Of a stretch of DNA of 64,000 nt, positions 15,120 to 64,000 are shown piece after piece. Location of the stretch: positions 1,612,001 to 1,676,000 of the forward strand of contig CP021228.1 in assembly GCA_003999685.1 (NCBI GenBank), read 5' to 3'. Made by a program: the position numbers and the translations under genes. This stretch comes from Taiwanofungus camphoratus. Taxonomy: Eukaryota > Basidiomycota > Agaricomycetes > Polyporales > Taiwanofungaceae. Position 1 is the first letter of the stretch, and each line of letters starts with the position of its first letter. Under the pieces are notes generated by a model, which ran no database searches, was not told the origin of the DNA, and saw nothing but the letters and a program-made list of their open reading frames with translations.

Positions 15120-16742
15120 GCAGAAGTCAATAGAATACAATGACATTGCAGGGATCATGTGCAGCATTTTGTACTCCAGGAATGTATTCCAGCATTTTTG
15201 CACTGTAAGATTACAGTACAAACAATAGCAAATATGTTTGATATGCTGGCACTGACTGGCCAGTCCCTCTTCATACTCATCTTGTTTCAGCAGGTCCGCA
15301 GATCTGCAGATTCTTCATGGTGAAAGCAGCCATTGTTCTAGCTTCCTTCTTAAAATGCTCCTAAGCACATTTGTGATGGTGCCTGCAAGTGAAACCTATT
15401 TAAGCAGCATGCTGTACTCCCTGAAAATGTCTTGGCTTGAATGTGTTTAAGTGCCTTGAACAGTACATTTTGCAATAATGTTACTATCACCATCCACATT
15501 CTTGACTTCATGGTACGAGAGAAGCATACACCTTCTCATGATCTGTGCTCACTATATAAGTAGCAATATGTTGAGTGGAGAGACAATTTTACTTGCCACA
15601 GTACCAATGAGGAGCGTAGTATGCTACTGTTGACTTTTTGTGATTAAATGTGCTATATGCTCAATGTTGGATTTAGTGTGCTTATATTGCTTTTGCTTGA
15701 GCAAAGGCATGTCTTAGGAATATGTTGTGATCAATGACCTGATTTCAGATAATAAGTTGTTGGTGTACATTGAAACGTACATGAATACTATACAGGTAAG
15801 AGATTATGTGAGGAAGATAGAAGAGGCATCTTGTGTCTCACTTACTAGCTTACTCATGACATTGACCTTCCAAGAACAAATGAATGAGTGTGCAATCTCA
15901 GACAGTGAGTTACTCTGATAGAGCAGCCCTGCCATGTTGATTTAATCACGTTCCAAGATGTTGATTTGCACTCCTAGACGAGTTTGAATGTTTGTTTTGT
16001 GTTTCCATCAACTCTAGCTTTAGTCAGGTTTGCTCCCCATGCCATTATACGAACCTTGCACTGTTGCATTTTCAAATGTTACATGCTACATATCTCAATG
16101 ACAGCAATCAAGAAATCTTCTCCATTCAGAGACTACATCCTCTGACAAAAGGGCCTTCAGTCTTTGTTGACACGCGATATTGTCCACAGCTCATTGAGAG
16201 GGAATGTGGGAGGAACACTCGGGCCAACAATAAGGATGAAAACAGCGATCTAAAGCATATATTTCAGAATGGAGCCAGATTCACCTAAGTCTCAGGCTCA
16301 GCAGAAGCAACTTTCCAGCCTAGGTCTGGTATCACCTCACTGACTTCCTCGATACTGTCAAAGTCAGAATAAGAAGAGGGTCTGATACGTGCACAAGAGA
16401 GGGCCTACGTATAAGCATTGTAACGCTCATGATAGGTAATAATTCATTCATCCCCTTCACCCCCAACTCCAGCGAGAAATGCCCAAAGGAGATGGTCCTT
16501 CTCACCAACAGGTGCATTGCCTATCTTGAATTTGTAGTGGCCATTCTCTAGAGCAATGATGTCCCACTGCAGACTCACATGCATCAAAATCTCTATCTGA
16601 AGTCTGGATTGTACTTATACGTGGTGCCTCTATGCCTGGAGGCAAGGACACAACTTGCTTGGGACATAATGATCTATCTTTAGCAAGTCTGCAGCCGATG
16701 AAGCTGCTGTCCTCAAGAGCAGGGCTGCTGATGATGTAGTAT

Positions 16743-16958
16743 TGATGAGCACAGACAATGGCTGAACCAAGAAAAGGGCGACACTAGCAGAATTCGAACC
16801 TGCATCCTCTCAACTGGCCTTCCAATGCTTTAGACCATTAAGCTATAGTGTCGGTCAAACCTAACTCTTGTTAGGTGGATGTGGGTACAAACCACTGAAG
16901 GCTTTGAACTCCCCCTGGGTACAAACCACTTAAGGCTTCAAACTTCCCAGTCTTATCA
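16743..16958 (-). mobile_element. 216-bp tRNA-bearing mobile unit, copy 1
   Basis: Mirror of copy 3. Ends TGATGAGCAC... and ...TTATCA are short inverted termini. It holds a tRNA-like sequence, a twice-repeated 30-bp stretch (…AGTGGTTTGTACCCA) and a 7-bp hairpin ACCTAAC/GTTAGGT. It sits inside the protease-inhibitor relic. Confidence 0.75.
16779..16852 (-). tRNA. tRNA-like sequence in 216-bp unit, copy 1
   Basis: Identical to the copy at 62268-62341: perfect 7-bp acceptor stem GACACTA/TAGTGTC, D stem GCTT/AAGC, T arm GCAGG-TTCGAAT-TCTGC. The anticodon arm pairs badly, and base 33 is G where tRNAs have U, so it is unlikely to serve in translation. Confidence 0.45.
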
Positions 16959-18638
16959 GCATCCAGTGGTGATTTTCTCAGCCATGACAGATGTTGTGAA
17001 GAAAATGATTTGTGACCCACCAACAGAAGAGAACCAGGGTTTATATACTAGGCAGAGGTTCAGGCCTCTTCCAAAAACACCTACTCATATTCCTTTCCAG
17101 AGCAATCTTGACATTTCACGGCGTCATCTTGTCTTGAACTCCACTCCCATGAAGTGAGTTGCTGATACAAATAAAGTCAGAAACAGCATTGTACAATCAT
17201 GGAATCATGAAAGTAGACTGAAATGAATTGACATTGTGATTATTCGCCCACTTGTTGTCATTATGATTTGAAAAACTCTTGTCTCATACCAAGATAATGT
17301 GTACTCTTTTTTGTATTGTATTTCAATACATTCCTTCATTGTTTCACCATTTAGAATGCTCTTGAGAAACAATAAATTACTCCGACCAGCCCAAAAATTC
17401 GACAGCACTCACTCAAATTCACATGATGCGATTGTCACTCAACCCTCCATTTTGATGTTATGTCCTGAACAGAAAGTGAAGTAAAAATGGACAAGAAAGG
17501 TGCCTCTACCATATGCAGCAAGAGGACATCAGCATCAAAAATCTCATTGGACATAATGAAGCCAGAAGATTATGCTCAAGTAGCTTGCTTCACAATGATG
17601 ATCTGTTTATTCAACACTAAGCAGCTTATTGTGGTAAAAAAAACCAGCTAAGACCGCAGTGTATTCATGAGCCTTACTAATTTTCAGCTTAGAGCGCTTG
17701 ATGTGAACCTTCTGCCTACAAGTCCTCAGTGTTGTGTTTACCAGCCAGAGTGGTCACGATCACCACTGTTACTTGTTGGTAATGTCCTCAACACGATCTT
17801 ATTTGTTTTTCTGAAATATGAAAGTGATCAATAGAATAATTTCAAGAGCGAAGGTAAAGCCTCATACTGATTGTTCTTCAAACTGTAATTCAAGTGTCAC
17901 CGGCCCTCAGAAGGCGCCTCTCAGCCCTTCTCACGTGGCAAGTCCAATAAACCTGGGCAGGTAAAACAGTCCATTTGATGTACACACTGACCACTTTCTC
18001 ATATTTCTGGGTTGCCTAGCATTAGGATCATAACCCTCACCTCTGATATTGACCCTGTGTCCCAGAAAAGACATCAATACTTGTTTGGAATGGGTCCTAC
18101 ATCGGACCAGCTGGAGGATCTTGAATACCTTTAAAGAAATTAGACTATCTTTTCATACCTGGATTATGAGTCTTTTCCTTTTACTGAGTTGGTCATGATA
18201 GTCCATGGAAAGAGATGCTTGCTAATCTTCTTGGCAAAACCACAAGCCTGAGCATGCAACTTTGATAGAGACATGGTATTGCTGAGACAATGACATTCCT
18301 TGCAGTCTAAATTGACTTCCTCATCATAATGACTAAATGAGAGCTGCTGACGCATGCACTCGAGGGCTTGTGAAGACTGTCATTTATGGAATGCTCAAGC
18401 TTATCAGGGCAGACACTAGTGGACATAACAGAGCACTCATACTGTACATACATGGTGACTGGACGAAATATGTGTGCATACAAAAATTACAGCAAAAAGC
18501 ATAGCGACAGATCAAGCTGAGTGACTCACATGAGAACGGTATTGGCAACGAACCAAGGACATAGAACACACCGAGAGCAACAGCAACAGTGACAAAAGTG
18601 ACAAACTGGTGATGGACAAGACCAGACAAATGACAGTA

Positions 18639-18972
18639 CTACTGCCTTGAACTCCTAAGTTCAAGCTCAAGTTCAGCCAACCTTCTCTCAGCCTCCTCTC
18701 TGCATCTCTTTTCCTCCTCCCTTTGTCTCTTTTCCTCCTCCCTTTGTCTCTCAGCCTCCTCTCTGAATATCTTTTCCTCCTCTCTGCATTTCTCAGCCTC
18801 CTCTTTGAATCTCTTTTTCTCCTCCCTGTGTTTCTCAGCCTCCTCTCTGCATCTCTTTTCCTCCTCCCTGCATCTCTCAGCCTCCCACTCACATCTCTCT
18901 GCCTCCTCTCTGCATCTCCTTTCCTTCTGCTCACATTTCTCAGCCTCCTCTCTGAATCTCTTTTCCTCCTCC
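18639..18972 (-). pseudogene. coiled-coil part of the unidentified arm gene, left copy
   Basis: Encodes a long Glu/Lys/Arg-rich helix with repeated EEAEKCREEEKR-type units ending AELELELRSSRQ. The R1 element is inserted in it (target CCTCC), and the rest of the gene lies at 34126-35027. The right-arm copy at 60236-60481 is shorter by several repeat units. Confidence 0.6.
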
Positions 18973-19527
18973 TGATACAACTTCTTTTTATCATGTATCT
19001 TATCGGTCGGACCTCGGAACGGTCCTGCGACCTTTTGCTTCCAGGACGGGCCTCGGGTAGGCCCAGCTTTTTCGCGCAGCATCTTGACTCATGGCTGCTT
19101 ACGGTACGGGCCCCGGACAGGCCCCGGTTACTCATGGACACTGACTCATATCGGGCCCTGCTTACACATTCCGTCTTACGCTTACTGATTGCTAATACGG
19201 CCCGATGACTCATATCACCTTACTTACGCTTACTCATGCTGATTCTTAGACCACGTGCCATGGTCCGTGCGCAGGGTAGAATACATATATAAGGCCCTGT
19301 ACTTTGTAGGTCGGACCTTAAGTTCGATCTGGTTACCAAGTAGCTAGTTACCACTAGCAATCTTATACTTGTATCTTGCGACCTCTCGCTTCGTACCTGA
19401 GTACTCGCTCGACTCTATCAACTTCACCCAGGAGGACATACGCAGTGTCCATAAAGCCTCGCTACTATCGCTAGTAGTCAGGTCCTCACGTCTGAGGCTT
19501 TCTGGTCATTGATACCAGCTTGTATCA
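18973..19527 (+). repeat. R1 5' LTR
   Basis: 555 bp, TG...CA ends, TATATAAGG at about 19286 as likely TATA box. Followed by AAAGATCGAACTTACGC, probably the primer-binding site; R2 has a near-identical motif at the same place. Confidence 0.9.
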
Positions 19528-19745
19528 AAAGATCGAACTTACGCTAAGTCGCCCCTAGTCTTATCTAGTAGGGCTAACCGTTAGACACCACATCTACCAT
19601 CGAGACAGTCGACCCCACCGTTTGGGGATTGCCGACTCAAGTAAACGACGCGCCGCTTCTGTACGATCGTCTTCGTTGAACTTTCGTTGATCAGAACCTT
19701 GATCCGATCTATCCGAACTCTCCACTCGCTTGGGCAGGGACAATT

Positions 19746-20941
19746 TTGAATCGACGAGCACAGGAGAAATTAGCCTCCTATTTCAGACGTAACCCTCCGC
19801 CAGACGGAAGAGACCCAGCTGGTTTCTTTCCCGCGTCGATACCTTCAACACCGTTGATAGCCACCCCGACCACTCCCACATTCTCATCACTTCCTTCCAC
19901 ACCAGTAACACCCACCACCCCTACCATGATGGCTACTATCGCAACAATGACCAGGGCAGAGCTCGAGGCGCTCATAGCGCACCTTTCGGTGCAACAGCAA
20001 CAGGGGAGTCGACCCCTTAAGCTCGACATTCCTGCACCGGAGCCGTTCACCGGGCAAGGAGAAGATCTGGAGCATTTCCTCCAGCGGGTGGAGCACTACC
20101 TCACTGCCACCAACAATCAAGGGTTAAGCGATGATGCAAAGATCGCTTACACAGTCGCTCTCATGAAAGGAGGGCAGGATGCACGTATCTGGCGCGATAC
20201 GTTTTACGAACGGGCTGCGGAAGGGCATGCTCCCTATGCTAGCTGGGACGTATTCAAGGCGAGCTTGCGACTTGCGTTCCCCGAGCACGAAGGAGTCCAG
20301 CGGGCTCACCAGGTGCTAATGGAGTTGCCGGCCAAGCAACTAAACAAGAAGACCAGGGTCAGTACGTGGAGAGGTTCTGACTTCTGGCAGAGAAGGCCAA
20401 GTTAAAGGACATTTTCACAAGCCTCCAAGGCCAATGCACCGAGAACGATTACCCCACATTGAGGGCGATCTTCATCAAGGGTCTGGACCGCCAGATCTAC
20501 ACGACACTCGCAGGCCGCACCAATACAGAGCGACCCAACTCCATGGAGAAATGGTATGCCGATGTTCTTCACCTCGACGCCGTCTACAGAGGGATTGACC
20601 AAACCCTCTCCGCCACTACTGATGTCGACTATGGTGAACCCATGGAGGTGGACGCACTCGTTACACCGCGTCCCACACCGTTCACCAAGAAGTGGGAGGA
20701 CGGATGCAACCTTAGCGAGAAGGAAAGGAAGTACCACATGGACAATCGTCTATGCTTCTACTGCCACAAGGGAGGACACGCAGTGCGCAGATGTCCGAAG
20801 AAGACGGCCAAGACAGGCCAAAGGAATACCTCGAAGGAACCCGAGGCGCGATTCCTCATGGATTTCTGCTCGTACATCAAGACGCTCTCATCGGATGAGA
20901 AGAGAGCGATGTTCGAGGAGTTAGGAATGGAGGATTTTTAA
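19746..20941 (+). other. R1 gag region (fossil)
   Basis: Capsid-type region with LDIPAPEPFTGQGEDLEHFL and GGQDARIWRDTFYERAA, then a nucleocapsid knuckle CFYCHKGGHAVRRC. Closely related to the gag of R2. Broken. Confidence 0.85.
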
Positions 20942-21092
20942 AGGGGCAGGGTGAGCCGACGCAACCACTGCCCGTATCCATTTCACTGTCCCGTGTTGTA
21001 CTTGTAGTCCGGAATGACAGAGCTTTGCACATTCCGATTACTGTGGGATGAAAAGCCGTCGAAGCCCACGCCTTTATCGATAGTGGCGCATC

Positions 21093-21568
21093 TGATACAA
21101 ATTGGTATCTCGGATCCTATATGTTGCCTCACACGTGAGGGCCTGACCACGATAGAAGGTGGCGAGGTCTTATGGTCGATATAGACCGAGTGTCGTGAAG
21201 TCCGTAGACTCGAGCGAGTATCACTCAGATGTGAGCGAGAGGATACAAGACACGAATATAATGGTAACCAGATCAGACTTAAGGTCCGACCTAAACTAAA
21301 GTACATGCTATATATACAAGTACGTATCCTGAGCACGGACCAAGAACTACTCTAGGGCAGGAGGTCCGTAATGTGGTACGACTATAGATAAATGCAGAGT
21401 GGTGCGATCCGGGCGTATTAGCAATATGTATGAGTGATGAGGAATGTGGTAAGCGGCCCGGATATGAGTCAGAGTCCTATGCGTAAGCGGGGCCGATCTG
21501 GGGCCCGTACAGTAGTAATCAATACGTAATCAATGACGTGGTAATGATAAGAAATGGAAATTGTATCA
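21093..21568 (-). repeat. R2 3' LTR (coding sense)
   Basis: 476 bp, two mismatches to the other LTR. A purine tract (AAGTAAGGGGGTAG on the minus strand) lies directly inside it. Confidence 0.93.
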
Positions 21569-21649
21569 CTACCCCCTTACTTAAGGTCGATCTCTGAGCG
21601 ACCCTACTTGTTTGTTCCGTTAAATAAAATGTTCTTCAGCCTATGCGGG

Positions 21650-21735
21650 TGTTTCACCGCGTACCATGAGGATGTTTCACCTCGTTCCGTGAGAGTGTTT
21701 CATCTCGTACCGTGAGGATGTTTCACCTCGTACCT
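21650..21735. repeat. short tandem repeat, 23-bp unit, about 3.7 copies
   Basis: Unit TGTTTCACCTCGTACCGTGAG with few changes, repeated at 21650, 21673, 21696 and 21719. Lies between the extra ORF and the 3' LTR of R2. Head-to-tail with no spacers, so not a CRISPR array. Confidence 0.8.
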
Positions 21736-21904
21736 GTAGACATGTGGGCGACCGGGTAAGGATCGCTTGCAACCTACCGCCTCAAGTAAACAGCACCCCT
21801 ACTGTTCACCGTCACCGTACAGTGTAAACACTGTACCCTGCTAGCATGTGGCTCAGTGTTTCCTAACTGAGTTGCAACTAGCCGCCTCCGGTAAGCAATC
21901 CCTT

Positions 21905-23074
21905 TCATTGCTCGCCATCACCATAATCCTCGAACCCGTAGTCGTCCCACTCATCGTCGTTCATGTAGGAGTTCGAGGGCGGGTCGTAATCCCTGCGGCG
22001 ATAAGCAGGTGGTGGAGAAACGACAGGGGGGATGTGATAACTGGACGGGGGAGGTGGGACGACTGAGGGAGGCGTGAATCGGCCGGCAGGGCCACGAGTG
22101 AAAGGGCCAGTACTTGCCCCGGGTTCTGCAAGGTGTTGGTTGGGCGGTATACCCAGTCCGGACAAATGGTTGAGTGATTGCCCGGGGGCGCGTGGGTGAG
22201 GGTATGGCGTATCGGTCCGCGATGGACCGGCTGTTGCATTGATGTGAGGGGCGGGCGGCCCATTGCTTTGGGAGCGGGGTGGGACAGGGGGAAGGGGTTG
22301 TTCTCTTCTGGACATCAGGACGCGTGGAGGGTTGGTGGCGGACATGATGGGGATGGGTGCCTGTGTGGGTCGGTGAATCGAGTCGACCATCTCGCGGCGA
22401 CGACCTTCTCCCGGGGCGGGTAAGATGGGTGGGGCAGAGGCGTGGCGTGCTACCGTGCACTCTCGAGATAGATGTCCTGGGGCAGTGCGATGGCACCTGG
22501 CGCAGGTGTAGTCTGGGCAGTCACGTACCCAATGCATCATGCTGCCGCATGCGTGACAGCGTCCTCGAGGTCTCCAGTTGGGCCCGGGGCGCATGTAGTT
22601 GGGGAGGGAGTCGATTCTACTAGGTACGGCTCCGATGGACTGTTGTCCGGCTGGGGTATCGATAAACACCTGTAGGGGGTCCTCAGGTTCAGGCGGTGGG
22701 GTAGGTCCACGTGTGACGATGTCGGGCTGCGAGCGTCGCACGAACCGATGGTGGTCGGTTCGTCGGTGTGGGGCGATCATGTCTTGCAGGTGGCGGGCCA
22801 TGGACATATCATCCATCTTTCGTAGGGTGCGGACCACCTTGAAGTCCAACTGCCTGATTTTGTTCTTCCATATGGCCAGCTGTTCCGTAGCGTCGTCCAC
22901 CGCTCCCAAGTACTGCAACCTGGCGTCGATGTATTCTCCGTATGCTTCTTGCTCATCCTGGTTGTTTCGTGTGTTTGGCATGGAACAAAGCAACCGCGCG
23001 ATATCCCTTGAGTGTCGAGTCAAGAGGTCGAGGAGGATGGGGTCTGCGTCATAGATCCAGCGAGGGTAGTACAA
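21905..23074 (-). other. R2 extra 3' ORF, 389 codons open, double zinc knuckle and Pro-rich tail
   Basis: Lies after the chromodomain, where some retroelements have env. No signal peptide or membrane helix is seen. N-terminal helical part (MYYPRWIYDADPILLDLLTR ...), then CHACGSMMHWVRDC and CARCHRTAPGHLSREC back to back, then a long Pro/Arg-rich tail ending in an acidic stretch. Zinc knuckles point to RNA or DNA binding. R1 keeps a related piece in the same place. It may start further upstream, towards 23.3 kb. Confidence 0.7.
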
Positions 23075-23356
23075 GACGTCAGCTTGTCGAGGTAGAGCGC
23101 CTTCCCCTGGTACGGGGTTGCGGAACTGGGCGGCGGTTGGGAGTCCGAAGAGTGGGCCGTTACCGGAAGATGCCGATGATGAGGATGACGAGGACGGTAT
23201 CGCTGTAGGGGATGTGGCCGTCTGAGGTGTTCGAGTAGCACGTCGACTAGCGAGGAAGGCGTGGGCTCAGCCGCGAGCGGCAGCTTGAGCGTAGGTATTG
23301 GACTGGCGAGGCATGTTGCGAGGGGGTGGTAGTTCGTCTGAAAGAGTGAACTGGTC

Positions 23357-26300
23357 CTAGCCCAAGTTCTTTCGCTCCTTATATGCTCCGAGGAGCTCCT
23401 CCGCAGTACCGGCTAAATTCGCTTCCGGTTCCCATGAGTCATCAGCCGAGGAATATCCTTTCCACCTGATCCTGTACTCGTGGCGTTTTGTCCGTAAGTT
23501 CTTCTGATGTCCGATGATGGCTTCGACTTCGTAGTTATCTTCGCCTTCGATAAGTTCCGGGGGCGGTCTCGTGTAGTTCTGGCCATGGATCTCCGTCTCC
23601 GTATATGGCGATAGAAGAGCTGCGTGGAAAACTGGATGTACTCGCCATGTTTCCGGAAGCTTTAGCTTGTACGAGACCGGGCCTAGGGCTTCGACAATTT
23701 CGAAGGGTCCCTCTCTCTTGGGTGCCAGCTTCCTGGAGGGGTATGGCAGTTTTAGGTTCCGAGAGTCGAGCCAAACCTGCTGTCCTTTGCGAAAACCTTT
23801 CCCTCGTGGTTTGATCCGCTTAGCCAATACCGCCTGTGCTAGCTCCATTGCCGCGTGTGCTTGGTCCCTTATCTTCTGGAGATTCTTTAGACGGTAAGCT
23901 GCGCCGGGTGTGTCCGATCCCTTGTGTACAACGGGGATTCCTCGCGGTTCGAAACCCATCATGACTTTAAACGGTGACGCCTTGATCGTCGAGTGTTCCC
24001 TAGAGTTGTGAGCGAATTGTGCTGCACTGAGTAGGGAAGACCATTTATCCGAATTGTTGCTTGTGAAGCACCGAAGGTATATTTCGAGTTCCTGATTTAC
24101 CCGTTCTGTTTCTCCGTCCGTCTGAGGGTGGAAAGCCGTGCTCATGGCGGACTGTACTCCTGTCATGCGACATAGCTCTTGGAACACCTTTGATGCGAAT
24201 TGCGGTCCGCGATCACTGATCACCTTGTCTGGGAGCCCGAACCATTTGTAGACCTCATTGTAAAGAAGCTCCGCCGTTCCTTGCGCGTCAATGGTTTTGT
24301 TGCATGGAATGAAAATTACCCCCTTACTTAGGTCGTGGTCCACTACGACCAAAATCGAATCGTAGCCGTTGGAAAGGGGTAAATCCGTGATGAAATCGCA
24401 ACAGAACGTGCTGAAGGGTGTGGCGTGAGCGGCGGCTCGGATAGGGACGAGGGCGGGGCGGTCCGGGTGGGTGTTAACCTTCATTTGCTGACAAGTGCCG
24501 CAACCTTTGACGTATCGTGTGATGAAGTCAGCCATTCCAGGCCACCAGTAGTCTCGTCGAATAGACGAGACGGTCTTTTGAATTCCAGGGTGACCGGCGG
24601 AGGGAAGATCGTGGTAATTCAAGACCGTTTGTCGCTGTAGGTCCTCGTTCAGGGGGATATATACCCGATTATCGTAGAGGAGGTCTCCGTCTCGAATTGT
24701 CCAGTGATTGTCTAAGCCGTTTTGTGCGCTATTCAGGCCGTCCATATATACCGAGTCGTTTACACCTGCCTTCCGAATGGAAGTCCTTAGGCTGGTGTCG
24801 ATTGCTGCTGTCCATACTTTGTCTGGTAGGACGGTTACATCCTGGTTGTCGGATGAGCCATCGTCGTGATCGGGGCGTCGGGAGAGTGCGTCGCTTTGCA
24901 CCATTTGTGTGCCGGGTACATGAACCAACCTGTAATCGAACTCAGATAGGCGAAGAGCCCATCATGCTTGCCTTCGATTCAGATTCCGTGCCGTTTTCCA
25001 GTATGTCAGATTCTTGTGATCGCTGTAAATCATGACTGGATATGGGCTACCGATGAGGAGGTGACTCCATTCATTGAGCCCTCTCATGACCGCCATAAGT
25101 TCCCGATCGTAGACATCGTAATTTCGTTCCGCCGGTGTCATGCTCTGGGAGATATAACCGCACGGGTGCCAATCTCCATTCTCATCCTTTTGCCTGAGGA
25201 CAGCGCCGGTGGCAAATTTCGACGCATCGGTTTCCATTGCGAACGGTTTCTCCAGATCGGGCATTAATAGGACCGGCTGTTCCAGGAAAGCTTTCTTTAG
25301 TGCTTCGAAAGCTTCCTGCTGTTCACTGTCCCAGTGCCATTTGACGTCCTTTCGCGTAAGCGAAACTAGTGGTTGGGCCAAGTGCGAGAATCGATGTATG
25401 AACCGACGATAGAAGTTTCCAAATCCGACGAACGACCTGACCTCCCTGAGGTTTTTGGGTATCGGCCAATCTTTGATACCGGCTACCTTGACTGGGTCCA
25501 TGGCGAGTTGTCCGGGTCTGATGATCATGCCTAGGAATTCGACTTCTTGCACGTCGAACTTGCATTTCTCCGGCTTGAGATATAGATCGTTATCTCGAAG
25601 TCGCTCGATAACTCGCCGTGTCCGTTTCTTATGCTCCTCAGGGTCCGTCGAGTAGATAAGGATGTCGTCCATATAGATTGCTAACCATCCTTCCTTGAGC
25701 ATGTCCGCGAAGACCGTGTTCATCATCCGTTGGAATGTCGCCGGTGAGTTGCACATCCCGAAGAACATTACCAGGGGTTCATAGAACGAGGGAGGTCCTT
25801 CCCCAGCTGCTGGAACACCGAAAGCCGCTTTCCATTCGTCTCCTTCCCGGATCCGTACGTTGTTATACCCTTGCCTGAGGTCCATCTTAGTGAAGATGGT
25901 CGCCTTGTTTAACCGTTCCAAAAGTTCCGATATGAGAGGGAGTGGATAGCGATCCTTGACAGTTCCCTCGTTGAGTTCTCGATAATCCTGACAAGGTCGA
26001 TATCCCCCATCTTTCTTTTCTACAAAGAAAAACGGGCTAGCCAATGGTGATTTCGATGGACGAATGTAGCCTTTCTGGAGGTTTTCTTCCAAGAACTTAT
26101 CCAGTTCCTCTCGTTCCTCTCTGTTGAGCGAATAAGTGGACTGCTTGAATTCCTTGAAATCTTCCTTTAGGTTGATCTCGTGATCGTGTTCCGTGTGCTT
26201 AGGGAGTCGGGCTGCCGCTTGCTTGTCGAACACCGGAAGAAGATCGTGAAGGTACTCAGGAACGAGTTCCGTGACCGGTTTCTCTTCTTTCTTGGCGTGT

Positions 26301-27193: not shown

Positions 27194-27237
27194 TGAAACT
27201 GAAACGGGCAGTGGTTGCGTCGACTCACCCTGCCCCT

Positions 27238-28569: not shown

Positions 28570-28716
28570 TCGTTGTTCGATGTCGTAGAGAAGTGGTTCC
28601 TCTCCCCGTGAAGGTAACCCCCAATATTCAGGATCGACGGTCCTGATATAAGACGTGGTAGTGGATGTAGGCCCGCTAGATGGTACTAGGGGCGGTTTAG
28701 CGTAAGTCTGATCTTT

Positions 28717-33003: not shown

Positions 33004-33010
33004 ACTTACG

Positions 33011-52497: not shown

Positions 52498-52680
52498 ATG
52501 TGGAACGATGAGTGAAGAAAAACAGCTAAGTCACACTGGCTTAAATCCTCTTTGACGGCACGAGTCACGAGAAGGTCAGAACCGCACAGGTCCCCATAAA
52601 GCTTCGATCCAGTCACATCCATCAAGCTTCTAGGCATCACATGTGGACCAAGGACGGTCCAAATTCCAAAAAGGAGGAGA

Positions 52681-53715: not shown

Positions 53716-56407
53716 GCGGCAGACTATCTTGCAAAGAAATACCACATCAACCACATTCGAATCAGCAGCTACAACTCCAGAGTGAATGGACTCATTAATG
53801 ACCACACTTCAGCACAAGACAAGCTTTGTTCAAAACCGCCAACGGAGACGAGAAGAAATGGTCTCACGTGATGTACTTCGTATTCTGGTCCGAACGCATT
53901 ACAACTCAACAACACATGGGTTGCTCACCGTACTTTGTGGTCATGGGCACTCACCCTCTCATTCCTCTCGACATTGTAGAAGCTACTTATCTTCAGCCCC
54001 CTCTGACTTCAATTCTTTCTATGACCGACCTCATCGCACAAAAAGCAATGGCACTCCAGAAGTGCGCAAAACAAGTGGTCAAACTGAAATCAAAGATCTA
54101 CAAAGCACGTCGAATGGCAGCTTTTCACTTCGAAAGGGAACACGAGCACTCAATCAAGGACTTTAATTTCAAATGTGGAGACTTAGTGCTCGTATGAAAT
54201 ATGAAGATCAAGAAACCCCTGAATAGCAAGGTGTGCCCCCACTACCTAGACCCACTCATTGTTGTCTCATGCAACAAGGGCAGTGCATACATCATCTGCG
54301 AACTGGACAGCACAGTCCTCGACCGGCCCATTGCAGCATTCTGAGTCATTCCATACTTTGCTTGACAATCCATCCCCATCCCAGACAACCTAGAAGATGT
54401 CTCAATGGAGCATCTTCGAAAACTTGAACGATCCAATTTGCTCAGCGATGATGACAATGACATCATCGAAGACGTCAAAGAAAGCGATCACTAGAAGCCC
54501 CTGTCCCTCTACTTGTACTACTACGATGCATACTTTCTACAGTCTCCACTCTCTTATGATATGTTTGATTCAAATTTAATTTTTCTATTTTGAGCTAGCA
54601 TCATTTTACTTGTACCATACACAATTCAACTCGACTAAGTCACGATATCGCTTTGATGTTCTACGAACGCTTTGATTTGAACGTTGCGCAGAGGCTCACA
54701 TTCTACAAGTCCTCCTAGGCAGTGATGACAAACTGAGCCTACCAACACTACCATCTTTCTTACCAAGTCCTTCGATATGTTCTTCTTCTTCAAACGCTTC
54801 TATTTCCTTCTATCACACTTTTTCACATCGGAATGAACAATTTTTTAATTTTCTACTGTACAGAAAGCCACAATCCATCACAAGACAACGACTACTCCTC
54901 GTTGCCTGACTCCAGCCCAATGACAAAACCACCATCCACAATCGCCTCCTGTTTCATGCACATTCGCTCTATATCGAGGTCGTGGAGTATGGCACAGCAA
55001 AACACAATGTTTGCACGCTCTGCCCGAATCATGCAGATGGCAGAGCGGAACTGCTCATTGAGGTCGAGCAAATCTAAGTCATCCTGCTCAAGGCCCAAGC
55101 GACTACCGCCATCCAAAGGAACCTTGACTGTGGAATGAGGAGGTTGCGTGACCTGGTGACACTTCGATCCACTGGCCTCCCCCGTCGAAGGTCCAGTGGA
55201 AGGGGCGAGCACTGCAAAAAGAAGTGTTAGAAGCACAGTGTACCAACCGAAAAGTACTTACCTTGCTTCTTTGCACCACCGCGCATCTTCTTTGTCTTGT
55301 CTAAAACTGACACACCACCAAAATAACACCCTTGCACTGCCTGTATGCAATGGTCACATGCAGTGGCACCCTTTGACCAGGTGCACTCGACGGTCTGGGT
55401 ACAGGTGCGACATCGATCACACTACGACAGAGGCGTTAGTCAAGAACGAAGACATACCGTATATCGAAGACGTACCTTCTCCCTCACCTGCTGCTTCTGC
55501 CGTGCAACTTGCACCCTGTCAGTCTTGGGTGCCACTGAGCCATCACGATCGCCCTTTGACGCCTTTTAGCAACTCAGTCAGTAAAAAGATAGGAGGACCA
55601 CTTACAGCCATACTCACCCCCTCCTCCTCCCGAGCCCGCTTCTTACCCTTCGAAGAAGTGGCGGCCTCTTCGAGCAGCTCCTTGGCCTCCTGTGCAAGAT
55701 GGGCAGCCGCTTCCTCTTCTCTGGCCAAATGTTCAGCCTCCTCCTGCTGACAACGCTCCTCCTCCAAGCGATGAACTTCAGCGGCAGCCGCACGCACCTC
55801 TTCTTCCAGGTGCCGCTCTTCCTCTATGCGGCACACAATAGCAATGTTGATAGCTACCGAAAGAGCAGGCCACTCATTGCAGACCCAGTGGACCCATAAC
55901 TCAGTGGCACGCTCAGCAAGGTCCTCGATGAGCATGGTGATGTGCCCTTGACCTCGGGGTCCGCAACAGCACCTCGGGCCTTACGATACGTACTCTACAA
56001 AGAGATCAGCCATGGTATAACAAGGAAGGACTAAGTAACTTACCAGGAGGTCTGCAACCTCCTGCACCCACTCCTCCACCTCTTTGACAGGAGCAGCCGC
56101 ACCACAGGGCGCGTTCAACATGGCAATGAGGTGGCCGTGAGCATGTTGTGCGTGTGATGAGGAAAGAGCAGGAGTTGTCGTATGAGAAGACATGGCATGG
56201 AAGGAGAGACGCATTGAGTAAAGACGAGAACACGAAGAGAAAACAGCTAAGTCGCTCCAGCTTAAATCCTCTTCGACAGCACATGATCAATGTGAGTCAT
56301 GAGAAGGTCAGAACCACGCAGGTCCATATAGCGCTTCAATCCAGTCATGCCCATCGAGCTTCTAGACGTCACATATGAGGACGGTCCAAATTCCAAAAAG
56401 GAGGAGA
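53716..56407 (+). mobile_element. R3 second, short unit (integrase end plus antisense block)
   Basis: Lies between the LTRs at 52681-53715 and 56408-57656 and shares the first with the long unit. It keeps only the C-terminal end of integrase (about 53.7-54.2 kb) and the antisense block (54892-56214, minus). The two units make an LTR-body-LTR-body-LTR array, usually the product of unequal recombination between LTRs. Decayed. Confidence 0.75.
54892..56214 (-). other. R3 antisense gene block, copy 2
   Basis: Same parts in the same order as copy 1. The cysteine cluster reads CDRCRTCTQTVECTWS...CDHCIQ...GC, the coiled coil EEEVRAAAAEVHRLEEERCQ. The first segment opens MSSHTTTPALSSSHAQ. Coding spacing is kept between the copies although the bases differ. 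Confidence 0.65.
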
Positions 56408-56652
56408 TGATAGGCACCAGGCCCTTTTAGGCCCCACGGAGTGCTCTCACTCGACCCTAGGACCTTAGTCATGGCTTCGACGCCACTCGATGTGTCCGAT
56501 ACTGCCCAAAGAGCCACTGTGGGACTCTCCGATAAGCTTCAAATCATGCCACAGCCACTCCACCAATTCTGGTCCGACGTTCCAACGCACAGTTCTCTCT
56601 ATGCACAAAGCGCCACATGCAGTTGCCACTCAAAGCCCTCGCACGTGACCGG

Positions 56653-56868
56653 TGATAAGACTGGGGAGTTTGAAGCCTTAAGTGGTTTGTACCTAGGGGA
56701 AGTTTGAAGCCTTCAGTGGTTTGTACCCACATCCACCTAACAAGTGTTAGGTTTGACTGGCACTATAGCTTAATGGTCTAAAGCATTGGAAGGCCAGTTG
56801 AGAGGATGCAGGTTCGAATTCTGCTAGTGTCACCCTTTTCTTGATTTGGCCATTGTCTGTGCTCATCA
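56653..56868 (+). mobile_element. 216-bp tRNA-bearing mobile unit, copy 2
   Basis: Same 216-bp length as the other copies. It lies inside an LTR of the R3 family. The sister LTRs at 43258 and 52681 lack it, so the empty site is visible. Flanks are CCGG on the left and CTGG on the right, a 4-bp duplication with one change. This shows the unit moves as a discrete piece. Confidence 0.8.
56759..56832 (+). tRNA. tRNA-like sequence in 216-bp unit, copy 2
   Basis: Same fold as the other copies with a slightly changed acceptor stem (GGCACTA against TAGTGTC, one G-U pair). TTTT follows within a few bases. Anticodon arm is degenerate. Confidence 0.45.
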
Positions 56869-57660
56869 CTGGTCACACCACCCCGATATTGCTCAATCAG
56901 CTTCGACGTGCCACTCAATGCACTCAATAACGCTACGGCCACAGGTTTTGTCTTAGTCTATGTATGTTTCTTTGTCTCAGCCTTACTAGTGATGTCAGTA
57001 TAGTAGCCACTCCCTCTATGAGCTATTCCGTAGTACGCAAGTAGTTAGGATGCCACTTGTACTATGCCACTCCTGATGTGCCTTACATTACAGTAAAGTA
57101 GTATAAACGTGATGTACAAGGTCTCAGACCAACAGAGAAGATTTCCTCCATTCTGCAGAGCTCAAGAAGAGCACCTTCAATACAGTCATCTATTGCGTTC
57201 TACAGCGTCTTTCTGTTTTCGATTATGTTCGAAGAGTTGCGTCTACAATCCACCTTCTACAGTATCTTGAAGGGTTGTATCTTGTCCATCTTCGACACCT
57301 GTCGAAGGGTTGTGTTCAGTCTTACGTCCATCTCCAAGTCACATCGAAGGACTGCATTAAATGTCTCATCTCTAACCCAAGTCCGTCCTCTACAGTAACT
57401 GAAGGGCTGCGTATCAGCTAAGTCCTCCCATTTAAGCTTCCCCTTAGTACAAGTACAACGTAGTAGCACATCGAAGCTACGTCAAGCAGCGCAACACACG
57501 TCATAGGTCATTGAAGACCTTTGTAGATGTCTCTCGACCTATTTGAGATCGAGAACCCTTTGCTGCTGACTCTCCCCTGCACACTAACAGTACTATTGCT
57601 TTTCAGCTTCTCTAGGTCGTACCCAGTTAGGGGTTGGAGTGTTATAGTGTGTATCACCGT

Positions 57661-59424
57661 TGATGAGTCCTGTGGCCTCCTGGGCCCCAAATCACAATTT
57701 TAGGAGCTCTCCTATCCCCTAACAGACCATTCTATGACTCTTCTACAGCCTATGACAGGTGGGATAGGTTCCTATAATGTTCCTAACACCTCCTTTCCTT
57801 TCTAAACCCTTCTAACACCCTACGAAGTCCTGCGAAGTCACAAGAGGTGCTATGAGGTTTTGAACGCTAGCCCCGAAGTCCCTAACTCCTGCTAAGTCCA
57901 CTATCAGACACTGCCAGCCCTCCCATATTGTTCTATTGGATCTAGGCCCCAGCTACTACATCACTCATCCCGGGTTTAGCTAAGAAGTCTTAGCTAAGTC
58001 TCTTCTAGCTTTTGTGATTGCAGTCACCTCCGATAGGCTCCGAAACAGTTTGAAGTTTCAAAGGCTGGACTTAGGAAGCCTTGTGCACTCCCTGGGTCTC
58101 AATTCTATGCCATAAGGCCCTCTTATGGCACAGCCATATGATCCTCTACCCATTTAGGACACCTTCTACCCTGATTAGGCCAAGTTCCGCTGCTAGAAAC
58201 TTTGTATGCTCTTAGCCCACTAAGACAGATGATCACAGCGCATGGCTGCTCTCGGATAGTCCTCTCACCCTCATGGATGGACTTGGTCACCTTTCTACTG
58301 TACATAGTTCCCCTGTTTCAGTTCCTATTTAGTTCCTATCCTCCTCATGTTCACTTTGGAGCCCATGCGCTGTAGTACACATTTTGAACTCGTAAGGATC
58401 ACTCTACACAAGAATAGTTCACCTCACGCTCCCCTATTTAGTCAGAGGTAGTTCACTATGTACCAGAGAGACCCCTTAGTGCACGCTTCTCCCTTTGGAA
58501 TACAAGTTCCCCTGTAGCTCTGATCTCAGAGAAGTGCCACGAGTACCACCTTAGGAATGGTCCTAAGCCCCTAAGTCTTCACCCTAGCTCCATTTCAGTA
58601 TCTTTGAACTACATCTACACTCATGATATATCTACGAACCACATCTACGCTTCCTGAACTACGCACTATGATCCACAAAGTCGCCGTGACTTTGCACTCT
58701 TCAGCACATCTTATAGCACCTATCCGGTGGGCCTTCACCTTGGTTATACCCTTAGGCTCACATTGCGTCATCCCTACGTCCTACGAATAGCCCTATGACT
58801 CTCTTATAGCCTTCATTTTAGGCCATAAGTACATCCCCCTACACCTTCGAACTCCTCAACCTACACCTCAAAGTCATTCGACACTTCAGAACTTCCAGCA
58901 ACCTCATTCCCCCATCCCTATTCCAAGTATTAGCTCTCCGAACCATCTGACCTCTTCTACAGGTCTCCTATGCTAGCCAAATCTCGCCCAACTTGCTCTA
59001 ACAAGCCTCAAAGCCTTATGTCCTTTAGCTAACTCTAGTTAAAGACTTCGCAGCAGTCTCGTACCATTTGCCAATTAATTGAAGCTATATTCCATTGGCT
59101 TATTGCTCCCTAACTCCATACAGCCTATGAAGTCAGCTTGTGCACTTTAGCTAAAAACTTCGAAGGACTTCGCAGAACTTCAAAGGACTTTGTGCACTTC
59201 GGAGAGCCTCACAAGGCCTTAGGGATCGTCTAGCACTTAGGAACAAGATCCTGTCATGCAGGACCCTTGGCCCCTTACTCCCTCACTTACAAAAACAAAA
59301 CATACAGGTTTCCCAGTATCATACAGGTTGTAGCTCCTCCTCTCACATCTCCACAGTTCACACACTATCTCCTAGCCATGTTGCGGAGCACTCTCTAGGT
59401 ACCAGGGTCCCCTAGGTTGTATCA
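57661..59424. mobile_element. 1.76-kb LTR-like element (TG...CA ends), probably a solo LTR
   Basis: Begins TGATGAGTCC and ends GGTTGTATCA, with CCGT before and CTGT after as a possible imperfect target duplication. It separates the outer R3 LTR from the restart of arm sequence at 59425. Rich in CT and short runs such as CCTACG and CTTCGAA; no coding capacity. No partner copy in this window, so the family is unknown. Confidence 0.5.
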
Positions 59425-59437
59425 CTGTTCATTGAAA

Positions 59438-60229
59438 ATGCACTTCAAATACCTTTCTGGCCGCTCGCCCTTCTCCAGCCTTCATATACAACTACAACTA
59501 TGACTACCGTTCATATCTGCCATCGACAACACCATACATCTGAAACATCTCTTCGAACCGCGTGACGAAAACCCCCACCCTGACAATAAGCCATACTCTA
59601 TCATTACACTCGAGCAGCTCTACATCAGCGGTGACCCCAGACTCTACGACTGTGTCATCTCCAAGATCACACTTTGGAAGCTCAGGGCTCTGCCGAATCA
59701 TAAATATGTTGTCGCACAAATCAACTACCAGAGGAGCATCATTGGTGCTCTGCACATCAAACGTACCATCATGCCCACCAATAGTTCTTCCGTGAACGCA
59801 TCAAGCGTGTCCCTCACCAGCAGCTCACTTTCCCCTGGTCTCCCTGCACACGACCTCATCACCATCTACACTGCGCAGGACGTCATCGCAGCAATGAGTG
59901 CCTCTGATGAGATTGTATGCCACCCCTTGCCAAAGACTCTGACTATCACCTTGGTCATTGTGGCCTGCTCTGTTCTGAACAAGGAATATCCAAGATACCA
60001 ATTGCAAACCACACAATGCTACTGGTTTGCAGGACTGGTGCTCCATCTCGTTGCTGGAGAGAATGTGATGCAGCAGCTGGAAGATAAGAACACATGCAAG
60101 GCTGGAGAGTTTGCATGGGTCATTCGTGTGATGAGACAGCCAGACTTGACCAGGCAAGCCCAAAGGCTCAGACCAAAGTTTGAGGCTAAATTACAAGGGA
60201 TTGAAGATGGCATCATTGAAAGAAAATGA
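59438..60229 (+). pseudogene. unidentified arm gene, right copy
   Basis: Reads MHFKYLSGRSPFSSLHIQLQ, then a TGA at 59501-59503 where the left copy has a sense codon, then an open frame to 60229 ending GIEDGIIERK. Otherwise the reading frame is kept, including LITIYTAQDVIAAMSASDE and CSVLNKEYPRYQLQTTQCYW. No named domain recognised. A stop shared by both arm copies separates this part from the coiled coil in the same frame. Confidence 0.55.
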
Positions 60230-60235
60230 ATTCTC

Positions 60236-60481
60236 TCTGTGGACACTGCAAGGGAGGAGGCAGAGAGATGTGAGCAGGATGTAGAGAGACGCAGGGAGGA
60301 GAAAAAGAGATGCAGAGAGGAGGCTGAGAAACGCAGGAAGGAGGAAAAGATATTCAGAGAGGAGGCTGAGAGACAAAGGGAGGAGAAAAAGAGACAAAGG
60401 GAGGAGGAAAAGAGATGCAGAAAGGAGGCTGAGAGAAGGTTGGCTGAACTTGAGCTTGAACTTAGGAGTTCAAGGCAGTAG
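60236..60481 (+). pseudogene. coiled-coil part of the unidentified arm gene, right copy
   Basis: About 80 codons of charged heptad-like repeats (REEAERCEQDVERRREEKKR ...) ending AELELELRSSRQ, in the same frame as the preceding part but past a TGA. A separate open frame at 60491-60736 follows with a hydrophobic stretch FVTFVTVAVALGVFYVLGSL that looks like a membrane helix. How these join is unknown. Confidence 0.5.
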
Positions 60482-62161
60482 TACTGTCATTTGTCTGGTC
60501 TTGTCCATCACCAGTTTGTCACTTTTGTCACTGTTGCTGTTGCTCTCGGTGTGTTCTATGTCCTTGGTTCGTTGCCAATACCATTCTCATGTGAGTCACT
60601 CAGCTTGATCTGTCGCTATGCTTTTTGCTGTAATTTTTGTATGCACACATATTTCGTCCAGTCACCATGTATGTACAGTATGAGTGCTCTGTTATGTCCA
60701 CTAGTGTCTGCCCTGATAAGCTTGAGCATTCCATAAATGACAGTCTCCACAAGCCCTCGAGTGCATGCGTCAGCAGCTCTCATTTAGTCATTATGATGAG
60801 GAAGTCAATTTAGACTGCAAGGAATGTCATTGTCTCAGCAATACCATGTCTCTATCAAAGTTGCATGCTCAGGCTTGTGGTTTTGCCAAGAAGATTAGCA
60901 AGCATCTCTTTCCATGGACTATCATGACCAACTCAGTAAAAGGAAAAGACTCATAATCCAGGTATGAAAAGATAGTCTAATTTCTTTAAAGGTATTCAAG
61001 ATCCTCCAGCTGGTCCGATGTAGGACCCATTCCAAACAAGTATTGATGTCTTTTCTGGGACACAGGGTCAATATCAGAGGTGAGGGTTATGATCCTAATG
61101 CTAGGCAACCCAGAAATATGAGAAAGTGGTCAGTGTGTACATCAAATGGACTGTTTTACCTGCCCAGGTTTATTGGACTTGCCACGTGAGAAGGGCTGAG
61201 AGGCGCCTTCTGAGGGCCGGTGACACTTGAATTACAGTTTGAAGAACAATCAGTATGAGGCTTTACCTTCGCTCTTGAAATTATTCTATTGATCACTTTC
61301 ATATTTCAGAAAAACAAATAAGATCGTGTTGAGGACATTACCAACAAGTAACAGTGGTGATCGTGACCACTCTGGCTGGTAAACACAACACTGAGGACTT
61401 GTAGGCAGAAGGTTCACATCAAGCGCTCTAAGCTGAAAATTAGTAAGGCTCATGAATACACTGCGGTCTTAGCTGGTTTTTTTTACCACAATAAGCTGCT
61501 TAGTGTTGAATAAACAGATCATCATTGTGAAGCAAGCTACTTGAGCATAATCTTCTGGCTTCATTATGTCCAATGAGATTTTTGATGCTGATGTCCTCTT
61601 GCTGCATATGGTAGAGGCACCTTTCTTGTCCATTTTTACTTCACTTTCTGTTCAGGACATAACATCAAAATGGAGGGTTGAGTGACAATCGCATCATGTG
61701 AATTTGAGTGAGTGCTGTCGAATTTTTGGGCTGGTCGGAGTAATTTATTGTTTCTCAAGAGCATTCTAAATGGTGAAACAATGAAGGAATGTATTGAAAT
61801 ACAATACAAAAAAGAGTACACATTATCTTGGTATGAGACAAGAGTTTTTCAAATCATAATGACAACAAGTGGGCGAATAATCACAATGTCAATTCATTTC
61901 AGTCTACTTTCATGATTCCATGATTGTACAATGCTGTTTCTGACTTTATTTGTATCAGCAACTCACTTCATGGGAGTGGAGTTCAAGACAAGATGACGCC
62001 GTGAAATGTCAAGATTGCTCTGGAAAGGAATATGAGTAGGTGTTTTTGGAAGAGGCCTGAACCTCTGCCTAGTATATAAACCCTGGTTCTCTTCTGTTGG
62101 TGGGTCACAAATCATTTTCTTCACAACATCTGTCATGGCTGAGAAAATCACCACTGGATGC

Positions 62162-62377
62162 TGATAAGACTGGGAAGTTTGAAGCCTTAAGTGGTTTGTA
62201 CCCAGGGGGAGTTCAAAGCCTTCAGTGGTTTGTACCCACATCCACCTAACAAGAGTTAGGTTTGACCGACACTATAGCTTAATGGTCTAAAGCATTGGAA
62301 GGCCAGTTGAGAGGATGCAGGTTCGAATTCTGCTAGTGTCGCCCTTTTCTTGGTTCAGCCATTGTCTGTGCTCATCA
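62162..62377 (+). mobile_element. 216-bp tRNA-bearing mobile unit, copy 3
   Basis: Begins TGATAAGACTGG and ends GTGCTCATCA, giving imperfect short inverted termini. Flanks ATGC and ATAC are a likely 4-bp target duplication. The related inhibitor relic at 36605 has the empty site (ACTGGACACTATATC). No ORF. It carries A-box- and B-box-like promoter sequence in the tRNA-like part and a T-run just after it. Confidence 0.8.
62268..62341 (+). tRNA. tRNA-like sequence in 216-bp unit, copy 3
   Basis: 74 nt that fold into acceptor, D and T arms with intact promoter-like boxes (TAGCTTAATGG and GGTTCGAATTC). The nominal anticodon would be GCC (glycine), but the stem UUGGA/UUGAG has at least one mismatch plus weak pairs, and U33 is missing. 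Best read as a pol III promoter head derived from a tRNA. Confidence 0.45.
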
Positions 62378-64000
62378 ATACTACATCATCAGCAGCCCTG
62401 CTCTTGAGGACAGCAGCTTCATCGGCTGCAGACTTGCTAAAGATAGATCATTATGTCCCAAGCAAGTTGTGTCCTTGCCTCCAGGCATAGAGGCACCACG
62501 TATAAGTACAATCCAGACTTCAGATAGAGATTTTGATGCATGTGAGTCTGCAGTGGGACATCATTGCTCTAGAGAATGGCCACTACAAATTCAAGATAGG
62601 CAATGCACCTGTTGGTGAGAAGGACCATCTCCTTTGGGCATTTCTCGCTGGAGTTGGGGGTGAAGGGGATGAATGAATTATTACCTATCATGAGCGTTAC
62701 AATGCTTATACGTAGGCCCTCTCTTGTGCACGTATCAGACCCTCTTCTTATTCTGACTTTGACAGTATCGAGGAAGTCAGTGAGGTGATACCAGACCTAG
62801 GCTGGAAAGTTGCTTCTGCTGAGCCTGAGACTTAGGTGAATCTGGCTCCATTCTGAAATATATGCTTTAGATCGCTGTTTTCATCCTTATTGTTGGCCCG
62901 AGTGTTCCTCCCACATTCCCTCTCAATGAGCTGTGGACAATATCGCGTGTCAACAAAGACTGAAGGCCCTTTTGTCAGGGGATGTAGTCTCTGAATGGAG
63001 AAGATTTCTTGATTGCTGTCATTGAGATATGTAGCATGTAACATTTGAAAATGCAACAGTGCAAGGTTCGTATAATGGCATGGGGAGCAAACCTGACTAA
63101 AGCTAGAGTTGATGGAAACACAAAACAAACATTCAAACTCGTCTAGGAGTGCAAATCAACATCTTGGAACGTGATTAAATCAACATGGCAGGGCTGCTCT
63201 ATCAGAGTAACTCACTGTCTGAGATTGCACACTCATTCATTTGTTCTTGGAAGGTCAATGTCATGAGTAAGCTAGTAAGTGAGACACAAGATGCCTCTTC
63301 TATCTTCCTCACATAATCTCTTACCTGTATAGTATTCATGTACGTTTCAATGTACACCAACAACTTATTATCTGAAATCAGGTCATTGATCACAACATAT
63401 TCCTAAGACATGCCTTTGCTCAAGCAAAAGCAATATAAGCACACTAAATCCAACATTGAGCATATAGCACATTTAATCACAAAAAGTCAACAGTAGCATA
63501 CTACGCTCCTCATTGGTACTGTGGCAAGTAAAATTGTCTCTCCACTCAACATATTGCTACTTATATAGTGAGCACAGATCATGAGAAGGTGTATGCTTCT
63601 CTCGTACCATGAAGTCAAGAATGTGGATGGTGATAGTAACATTATTGCAAAATGTACTGTTCAAGGCACTTAAACACATTCAAGCCAAGACATTTTCAGG
63701 GAGTACAGCATGCTGCTTAAATAGGTTTCACTTGCAGGCACCATCACAAATGTGCTTAGGAGCATTTTAAGAAGGAAGCTAGAACAATGGCTGCTTTCAC
63801 CATGAAGAATCTGCAGATCTGCGGACCTGCTGAAACAAGATGAGTATGAAGAGGGACTGGCCAGTCAGTGCCAGCATATCAAACATATTTGCTATTGTTT
63901 GTACTGTAATCTTACAGTGCAAAAATGCTGGAATACATTCCTGGAGTACAAAATGCTGCACATGATCCCTGCAATGTCATTGTATTCTATTGACTTCTGC

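What the first reader, a model, noticed from the sequence alone, without database searches (positions are those of the whole stretch)
15120..64000. Giant inverted repeat with host genes in its centre and an abrupt change in identity
Outer arms 15120-18697 and 60423-64000 are exact mirrors (coordinate sum 79120, no difference seen), while just inside 18698/60422 the arms are only about 92-95 per cent alike. The sharp step suggests a recent event limited to the outer part: gene conversion, a fresh inverted duplication on top of an old one, or an assembly fold-back or collapse. The arms enclose about 5.6 kb with three intact genes.
Basis: seen in the sequence. Interest (0 to 1): 0.85.

Follow-up and report, generated by a model that had tools for sequence, protein, structure and literature searches.

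The report
Inverted gene duplication, partly re-homogenised
In the medicinal fungus Taiwanofungus camphoratus an old back-to-front duplication carrying a basic cell gene has been broken up by jumping genes, and its outer part looks to have been copied from one arm onto the other much later, which would explain the sudden jump in similarity; it is a well-resolved example of a known process, not a new kind of element.

Summary
The inverted repeat is real. The given end (15120/64000) is only the window edge: the arm runs 10591-18869 against 68536-60251 (8,289 columns, 99.48%), holds a full-length ULA1 gene in each copy, and ends inside a ~250-bp TIR/MITE-like element. It also continues inwards past LTR insertions: 34131-35033 and 37032-37343 pair with 60336-59432 and 43258-42947 at 91-93%, enclosing a 5,603-bp spacer with three genes. 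The step in identity is sharp: 10 substitutions in 7,965 sites in 10732-18697, but 63/903 and 28/312 further in and 5/140 at the outer tip.
Best explanation: an old inverted duplication, then LTR insertions in both arms, then later one-way copying (gene conversion or break-induced replication) of about 8 kb of the outer arm, stopping at a minisatellite 275 bp short of the left LTR insertion. A mutation-rate difference alone is unlikely: core non-coding DNA is as CpG-depleted as the inner arms, yet 78 of 79 CpG sites agree between copies, against 11 of 56 inside. Assembly fold-back is unlikely. New member of a known kind.

The parts
10591..10780 (-). Outer end of left arm: truncated copy of a ~250-bp TIR (MITE-like) element; its longer counterpart, with both ends, lies at about 68341-68591, beyond the window
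   Evidence: Genome hits of both ends and alignment with 4 other copies
10732..18697 (+). Homogenised core of left arm (mirror of 60423-68396): 10 substitutions in 7965 aligned sites
11052..13512 (-). ULA1 (NEDD8-activating enzyme E1 regulatory subunit), left copy, spliced; right copy at 65608-68076 (+), beyond the window
   Evidence: Ten segments of the 542-aa protein P0134 (538 residues; 4 exon-edge residues left out) found without a stop in both arms; Pfam ThiF
13521..18514 (.). CpG-depleted, presumably non-coding part of the core (CpG o/e 0.30-0.38)
18515..18972 (-). Coiled-coil (3') part of a multi-copy gene, with a 21/42-bp minisatellite at 18684-18971; the inner limit of near-identity lies here
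18973..34125 (.). LTR retrotransposon (outer, older) inserted in the left coiled-coil gene; LTRs 18973-19527 and 33582-34125, 5-bp target duplication CCTCC
21093..29192 (-). Nested younger LTR retrotransposon (Gypsy type with chromodomain); LTRs 2 differences in 476, target duplication GCATC
34131..35033 (-). Left arm continued: 5' part of the coiled-coil gene, 63 substitutions in 903 against the right arm
35034..37031 (.). Left-arm stretch with no counterpart found in the right arm, where the LTR cluster lies instead
37032..37343 (+). Innermost left arm, 28 transitions in 312 against 43258-42947
37344..42946 (.). Spacer with three genes: AcW1_010225 (37508-38723 +), LysM-domain gene (about 39.8-40.6 kb, -), NUBPL-type NTPase (about 40.9-42.1 kb, +)
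42947..43258 (-). Innermost right arm
43259..59426 (+). Right-arm retrotransposon cluster (reverse-transcriptase RNase H domain in the one ORF tested; two tandem units, about 49361-53715 and 53715-57656); its ends show no matching target duplication
59427..60580 (+). Right-arm coiled-coil gene region, without the left insertion (empty site); 152-aa ORF 59771-60229
60423..64000 (-). Homogenised core of right arm inside the window; continues to 68396

Best explanation
An inverted duplication of about 11.6 kb (ULA1, non-coding DNA and a coiled-coil gene), with a 5.6-kb spacer of three genes, arose before the sequenced strains of Taiwanofungus camphoratus separated (inferred). Both arms then collected LTR retrotransposons: a 15.2-kb nested pair in the left coiled-coil gene and a 16.2-kb cluster in the right arm (insertions shown, order in the right arm not dated). 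Later, about 8 kb of the outer arm was copied from one arm onto the other by homologous recombination (gene conversion, possibly by break-induced replication; inferred), wiping out most differences between 10732 and 18697. The tract ended near where pairing fails: outside at the truncated TIR element, and inside at a minisatellite whose length differs between arms, 275 bp before the left LTR insertion. The short outer tip and everything inside kept the old divergence. The effect is two nearly identical full-length ULA1 copies. Direction of copying is not known.
For: Sharp step with older-looking DNA on both sides of the core: 5/140, 10/7965, 63/903, 28/312 substitutions; core vs outer tip P=3.7e-6, core vs 34131-35033 P=9.9e-53, and without CpG-type changes P=4.2e-17. 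The right arm is the empty site of the left LTR insertion, so the duplication is older than the insertion, and the LTR pair (5 non-CpG changes in 544) is more diverged than the core (8 in 7965), P=0.0009. The core non-coding DNA has the same CpG depletion as the inner arms, yet 78 of 79 CpG sites agree between copies against 11 of 56 inside, P=4e-24. In the inner arm both copies have changed since they split (32 left-derived, 20 right-derived, 11 undetermined of 63), and the left copy groups with strain V7's protein apart from the right copy (5 shared-derived residues, one of them weak, against 1 for right+V7; support 81/85). In the core the two ULA1 copies share 3 residues against one V5 copy and differ from each other at 1. 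The ULA1 cluster has two V5 tags near the spacer-gene tag.
Against: Most inner divergence is transitions (88 of 91), 56 of them CpG-type, so part of the step is a mutation effect; by transversions alone the difference is modest (3/1215 vs 2/7965, P=0.019). The grouping of left+V7 is below the tree tool's star threshold; only 1 of the 3 ULA1 residues is derived in W1, judged by one outgroup (P0135), another is derived in V5. The V5 and V7 proteins come from different strains, and V5's second ULA1 sequence was not seen. The minisatellite blurs the inner limit. No reads were examined.
Confidence: 0.72

Rival explanations
1. Two inverted relatives of the coiled-coil gene and two copies of the TIR element were already there by themselves; one break was repaired by copying the stretch between them (ULA1 and non-coding DNA) from the other side, so the 8-kb core was duplicated only once, recently.
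For: Both step points lie in repeats: the outer in the TIR element, the inner in a multi-copy gene's minisatellite.
Against: The two coiled-coil copies are far closer to each other (93%) than to the 7 other genome places that match its 5' part (77-81%), and the innermost 37032-37343 pair matches nothing else in the genome search, so one original duplication explains the tips more simply. The ULA1 cluster has two V5 tags.
Confidence: 0.14
2. One duplication only; the inner arms diverged faster because DNA next to LTR elements is methylated or hit by a RIP-like process, and the outer core was spared.
For: Inner differences are 88 transitions to 3 transversions, 56 CpG-type; of 52 polarised changes in 34131-35033, 42 are C>T or G>A; CpA/TpG pairs point to independent CpG loss. 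CpG methylation and CpG-biased RIP-like change are reported for another polypore, Ganoderma sinense (PMC4457147, abstract and passages read). CpG loss in the core could be older than the duplication.
Against: The core non-coding DNA is just as CpG-depleted (o/e 0.30-0.38 vs 0.16-0.47) but shows 1 changed CpG site of 79 between copies. Non-CpG changes differ 25-fold between the core and 34131-35033, and the outer tip has 2 transversions in 140 (P=0.0017).
Confidence: 0.1
3. Assembly artefact: fold-back or mixing of reads of the two arms during consensus.
For: Near-identity over 8 kb is a range where long-read consensus might mix copies (general knowledge, not tested); orientation of the 41-kb interior depends on reads crossing the arms. 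The paper's W1 genome size (33,373,109) is not that of the held genome (33,194,378).
Against: Distinct flanks, 30 mismatches and 5 gap openings between arms, no N in 84 kb, PacBio+Illumina assembly (PMC8865532, sections 6 and 20), and two ULA1 tags in a separately assembled strain.
Confidence: 0.04

Closest known systems
Arm-to-arm gene conversion in palindromes / large inverted repeats of mammalian sex chromosomes (PMC3308322, abstract and passages read)
   Same: Inverted arms around a spacer with genes in the arms, and arm similarity attributed to conversion rather than to recent origin
   Different: Fungal chromosome in a haploid monokaryon; about 8 kb of near-identity inside a longer, decayed, LTR-interrupted repeat; only one pair of arms studied
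Ectopic gene conversion that leaves a block of low divergence between more diverged parts (the X-Y case in PMC3308322, passages read)
   Same: Abrupt change of divergence along one homologous pair, argued against a local drop in mutation rate
   Different: Here within one chromosome, and the limits coincide with a truncated TIR element and a minisatellite next to an LTR insertion
Gypsy LTR retrotransposons of T. camphoratus (PMC8865532, section 7 read)
   Same: Reverse transcriptase, RNase H, integrase, chromodomain, paired LTRs, 5-bp target duplications
   Different: They are secondary insertions here, not the cause of the inverted repeat as far as tested

Membership tests
Large inverted duplication (palindrome with spacer) | Two arms in opposite orientation, collinear, around unique DNA | tested here: met
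   Collinear blocks 10591-18869, 34131-35033, 37032-37343 against 68536-60251, 60336-59432, 43258-42947; spacer 5603 bp. Copy number of the spacer beyond 37600 was not searched in the genome
Large inverted duplication (palindrome with spacer) | Defined outer ends with different flanks | tested here: met
   Mirror stops at 10591/68536, no similarity found beyond
Arm-to-arm gene conversion | Block of near-identity between more diverged homologous flanks | tested here: met
Arm-to-arm gene conversion | Low divergence not due to a low mutation rate | tested here: met
   CpG-depleted core non-coding DNA, 78 of 79 CpG sites shared against 11 of 56 in inner arms; the transversion test alone is weak (P=0.019)
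Arm-to-arm gene conversion | Conflicting phylogeny: copies group by strain inside the tract and by position outside | tested here: inconclusive
   Outside: left copy + V7 against right, support 81/85. Inside: one residue derived in both W1 copies against one V5 copy, judged by one outgroup; the second V5 copy not seen
LTR retrotransposon (18973-34125 and 21093-29192) | Paired LTRs, target-site duplication, reverse transcriptase/integrase | tested here: met
Assembly fold-back | Arms identical, without distinct flanks | tested here: not met
   spanning reads not testable with these tools
RIP (repeat-induced point mutation) | C-to-T change across duplicated DNA that is long and similar enough | tested here: not met
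   The most similar 8 kb is the least changed; a RIP-like past of the inner arms is not excluded, and RIP genes were not looked for

The most novel reading that the evidence does not exclude
Retrotransposon insertions act as firebreaks for concerted evolution in this fungal inverted repeat: repeated conversion keeps two ULA1 copies and 5 kb of CpG-poor DNA alike and resets methylation-type decay, while the arm parts cut off by LTR elements decay freely.
Probability: 0.3. Interest if true: 0.55.

Novelty: new member of a known kind. Interest (0 to 1): 0.42.

Why it matters
It is a base-level map of a likely conversion tract in a basidiomycete inverted repeat, with internal clocks (CpG decay and LTR insertions) that separate age from homogenisation. 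It lets one ask, in the four published strain genomes, whether retrotransposon insertions stop concerted evolution and whether conversion offsets decay in repeated DNA. It also shows that this genome carries two full-length ULA1 copies. My search of the held open-licence library for 'Taiwanofungus' with 'gene conversion' gave 0 papers.

Tried and rejected
I first took ULA1 to be truncated because I read only ORFs of 90 aa or more; the 542-aa protein P0134 showed its exons in both arms. I first took 18973-19528 / 50142-50696 as arm homology; they are copies of an LTR. The polarisation is dropped: 5 of its 7 outgroup loci were in the opposite orientation (their identity to the arms came out near 43%); one search repeats it with all 7 turned round. 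Transversions alone as a clock were too few to decide.

Which arm is the original could not be settled: the longer TIR element sits at the right end, but the spacer gene nearest the left arm has, in some Polyporales, a locus tag next to that of ULA1 (Laetiporus 709012/709013, Trametes cinnabarina g86/g87, Trametes versicolor 10097/10098, Ganoderma adspersum 002391/002392, Ganoderma leucocontextum 975391/975390); in others the tags are not adjacent (for example Wolfiporia, Gelatoporia, Fomitopsis serialis) (tags only, from capped lists, gene order not examined). Paper searches on inverted duplication, conversion and heterology (6 listed) and on 'Antrodia cinnamomea' with 'NEDD8' (1 listed) gave nothing on point by their listings.
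Full report
Setting. The window is C9:1612001-1676000 of a 33.19-Mb, 15-contig genome. The spacer gene's product is 100% identical, over a 236-aa query that I put together from three exons, to a 289-aa record named AcW1_010225 of Taiwanofungus camphoratus (syn. Antrodia cinnamomea), and another AcW1 protein lies on a contig of 1,741,554 bp, the length of C9. The paper on strain W1 describes PacBio and Illumina sequencing without unidentified bases, 14 nuclear chromosomes and a mitochondrial genome (PMC8865532: abstract, outline, passages, sections 6, 7 and 20 read). Its W1 size, 33,373,109 bp, differs from the held 33,194,378; I did not find out why.

The observation. The mirror with sum 79120 is there, but 15120/64000 is the window edge and three bases differ in the 3,578 (16141, 18373, 18537). 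With the next 20 kb added, the arm is 10591-18869 against 68536-60251, 8,289 aligned columns at 99.48%, 30 mismatches and 5 gap openings (the segment alignments give 5+10+19 = 34 substitutions for the same stretch, the difference lying in how the minisatellite is aligned). Each copy holds a ULA1 gene (11052-13512 and 65608-68076): ten segments of the 542-aa protein P0134, 538 residues in all, are found without a stop in both arms. Beyond 10591/68536 no similarity was found. The end lies inside a roughly 250-bp terminal-inverted-repeat element that has both ends in the right copy and is cut in the left.

Further in. The left arm is cut at 18973 by an LTR element ending at 34125, with LTRs starting TGATACAA and ending TTGTATCA and a CCTCC target duplication; a younger Gypsy-type element with chromodomain (21093-29192, target duplication GCATC) sits inside it. 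With the insertion left out, the left gene runs on in register with the right arm, which is the empty site. A second stretch, 37032-37343, pairs with 43258-42947 and has no third match in the genome search. The right arm carries its own retrotransposon cluster (43259-59426), and no counterpart of left 35034-37031 was found there. The ends of that cluster show no matching target duplication (reading), so it is not one simple insertion. The spacer, 37344-42946, holds AcW1_010225, a LysM-domain gene and a NUBPL-type NTPase gene.

Shape of the divergence. Substitutions per aligned site: outer tip 5/140; core 10/7965; minisatellite 19/172; 34131-35033 63/903; 37032-37343 28/312. The change is abrupt at both ends. 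At the outer tip 3 of the 5 differences could be polarised with other copies of the element, and all three changed in the right copy (my reading of the alignment), which does not fit a recent copy of the right end. In 34131-35033 both copies have changed: 32 left-derived, 20 right-derived, 11 undetermined (seven outgroup copies; an earlier count is dropped because five outgroups were wrongly oriented).

Is it mutation rate? The inner differences are 88 transitions and 3 transversions, 56 of the transitions CpG-type, so CpG decay contributes much. The telling check was composition: the core DNA at 13521-18514 has CpG observed/expected of 0.30-0.38, the inner arms 0.16-0.47, while ULA1, the spacer and both outer flanks have 0.95-1.09. 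The core has therefore been through similar decay, yet 78 of 79 CpG sites still agree between its two copies (13521-18697), against 11 of 56 in the inner arms (Fisher P=4e-24). Without CpG-type changes, core and 34131-35033 still differ (8/7965 vs 23/903, P=4.2e-17). Against this, by transversions alone the contrast is weak (2/7965 vs 3/1215, P=0.019), and an older shared decay followed by a recent duplication plus very fast inner decay cannot be wholly excluded.

Order of events. The right arm lacks the left LTR insertion, so duplication came first. The LTR pair (18/544 substitutions, 5 non-CpG) is more diverged than the core (non-CpG P=0.0009), so the homogenisation came after the insertion if rates are comparable. 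The nested element's LTRs differ at 2 of 476, not distinguishable from the core (P=0.14).

Other strains. In the 152-residue part of the coiled-coil gene, the left copy shares 13 residues with V7's AcV7_007649 against the right copy; 6 are private to the left, 3 to V7, 2 differ in all three. Polarised with ten relatives, 5 are shared-derived for left+V7 (one of them, residue 8, weakly), 1 for right+V7 and none for left+right; the left+V7 fork has support 81/85, under the tool's star threshold. In ULA1 the two W1 copies share three residues against P0134 of V5 and differ at one, A264V in the right copy (a fourth apparent difference lies at an exon edge and is not counted). Judged by one outgroup, P0135, one of the three is derived in W1 (I169V), one in V5 (residue 396) and one is undetermined. 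The P0134 cluster (19 members) is named by two V5 tags, AcV5_003113 and one beginning AcV5_00310; the spacer protein carries a V5 tag beginning AcV5_00311 (names are cut in the output). V5 therefore appears to have the duplication too. V5's second copy was not seen.

Mechanism. Shown: an inverted duplication with spacer, retrotransposon insertions in both arms, a block of near-identity with sharp limits, and more diverged homologous DNA on both sides. Inferred: one-way copying of about 8 kb between arms by homologous recombination, ended outside by the end of homology and inside by the minisatellite (about 190 bp longer in the left arm) just before the LTR insertion. Gene conversion and break-induced replication cannot be told apart here, nor one event from several, nor the direction.

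Known context. Conversion between arms of inverted repeats is described for mammalian sex chromosomes (PMC3308322, passages read). CpG-directed methylation and RIP-like change are reported in a polypore (PMC4457147, passages read). I found no report for this genus (0 papers for 'Taiwanofungus' and 'gene conversion'; only an open-licence library was searched). Verdict: a real, well-resolved new example of a known process; the possible role of retrotransposons as barriers to conversion is the interesting and testable part.

Noticed in passing
C6:1851722-1852197 (loci L062-L064): A third, broken ULA1-like copy, 87% identical in DNA to the arm copy over 1.79 kb, with a stop inside an exon.
   Followed up: partly
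window 59427-60730 and C9:35k, 97k, 200k, 341k, 347k; C13:923k; C4:2885k (L014-L020): Family of genes of unknown function with a heptad-coding minisatellite (coiled coil); no Pfam hit in the members tested. Five of the seven other places lie in the left fifth of C9; C4:2865k (L004) matches the 3' part only.
   Followed up: partly
C9:35266-36159 and C9:97307-98243: Two copies of that family are 98.4% identical in the piece compared, a possible second recent duplication on the same chromosome.
   Followed up: no
   Followed up: no
   Followed up: no
window 49361-53715 and 53715-57656: Two tandem retrotransposon units with matching pieces 81-84% alike in the right cluster, the first carrying an LTR copy of the left element's family (50142-50696).
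   Followed up: partly
window 12585 / 66535-66543: A 9-bp difference between the two ULA1 copies, between two exons: the right copy has the extra bases; by eye the C6 copy resembles the left.
   Followed up: partly
window 35235-36649: Distant similarity (64-69%) to C1:1173877-1175191, possibly an old gene or gene remnant in the left arm.
   Followed up: no
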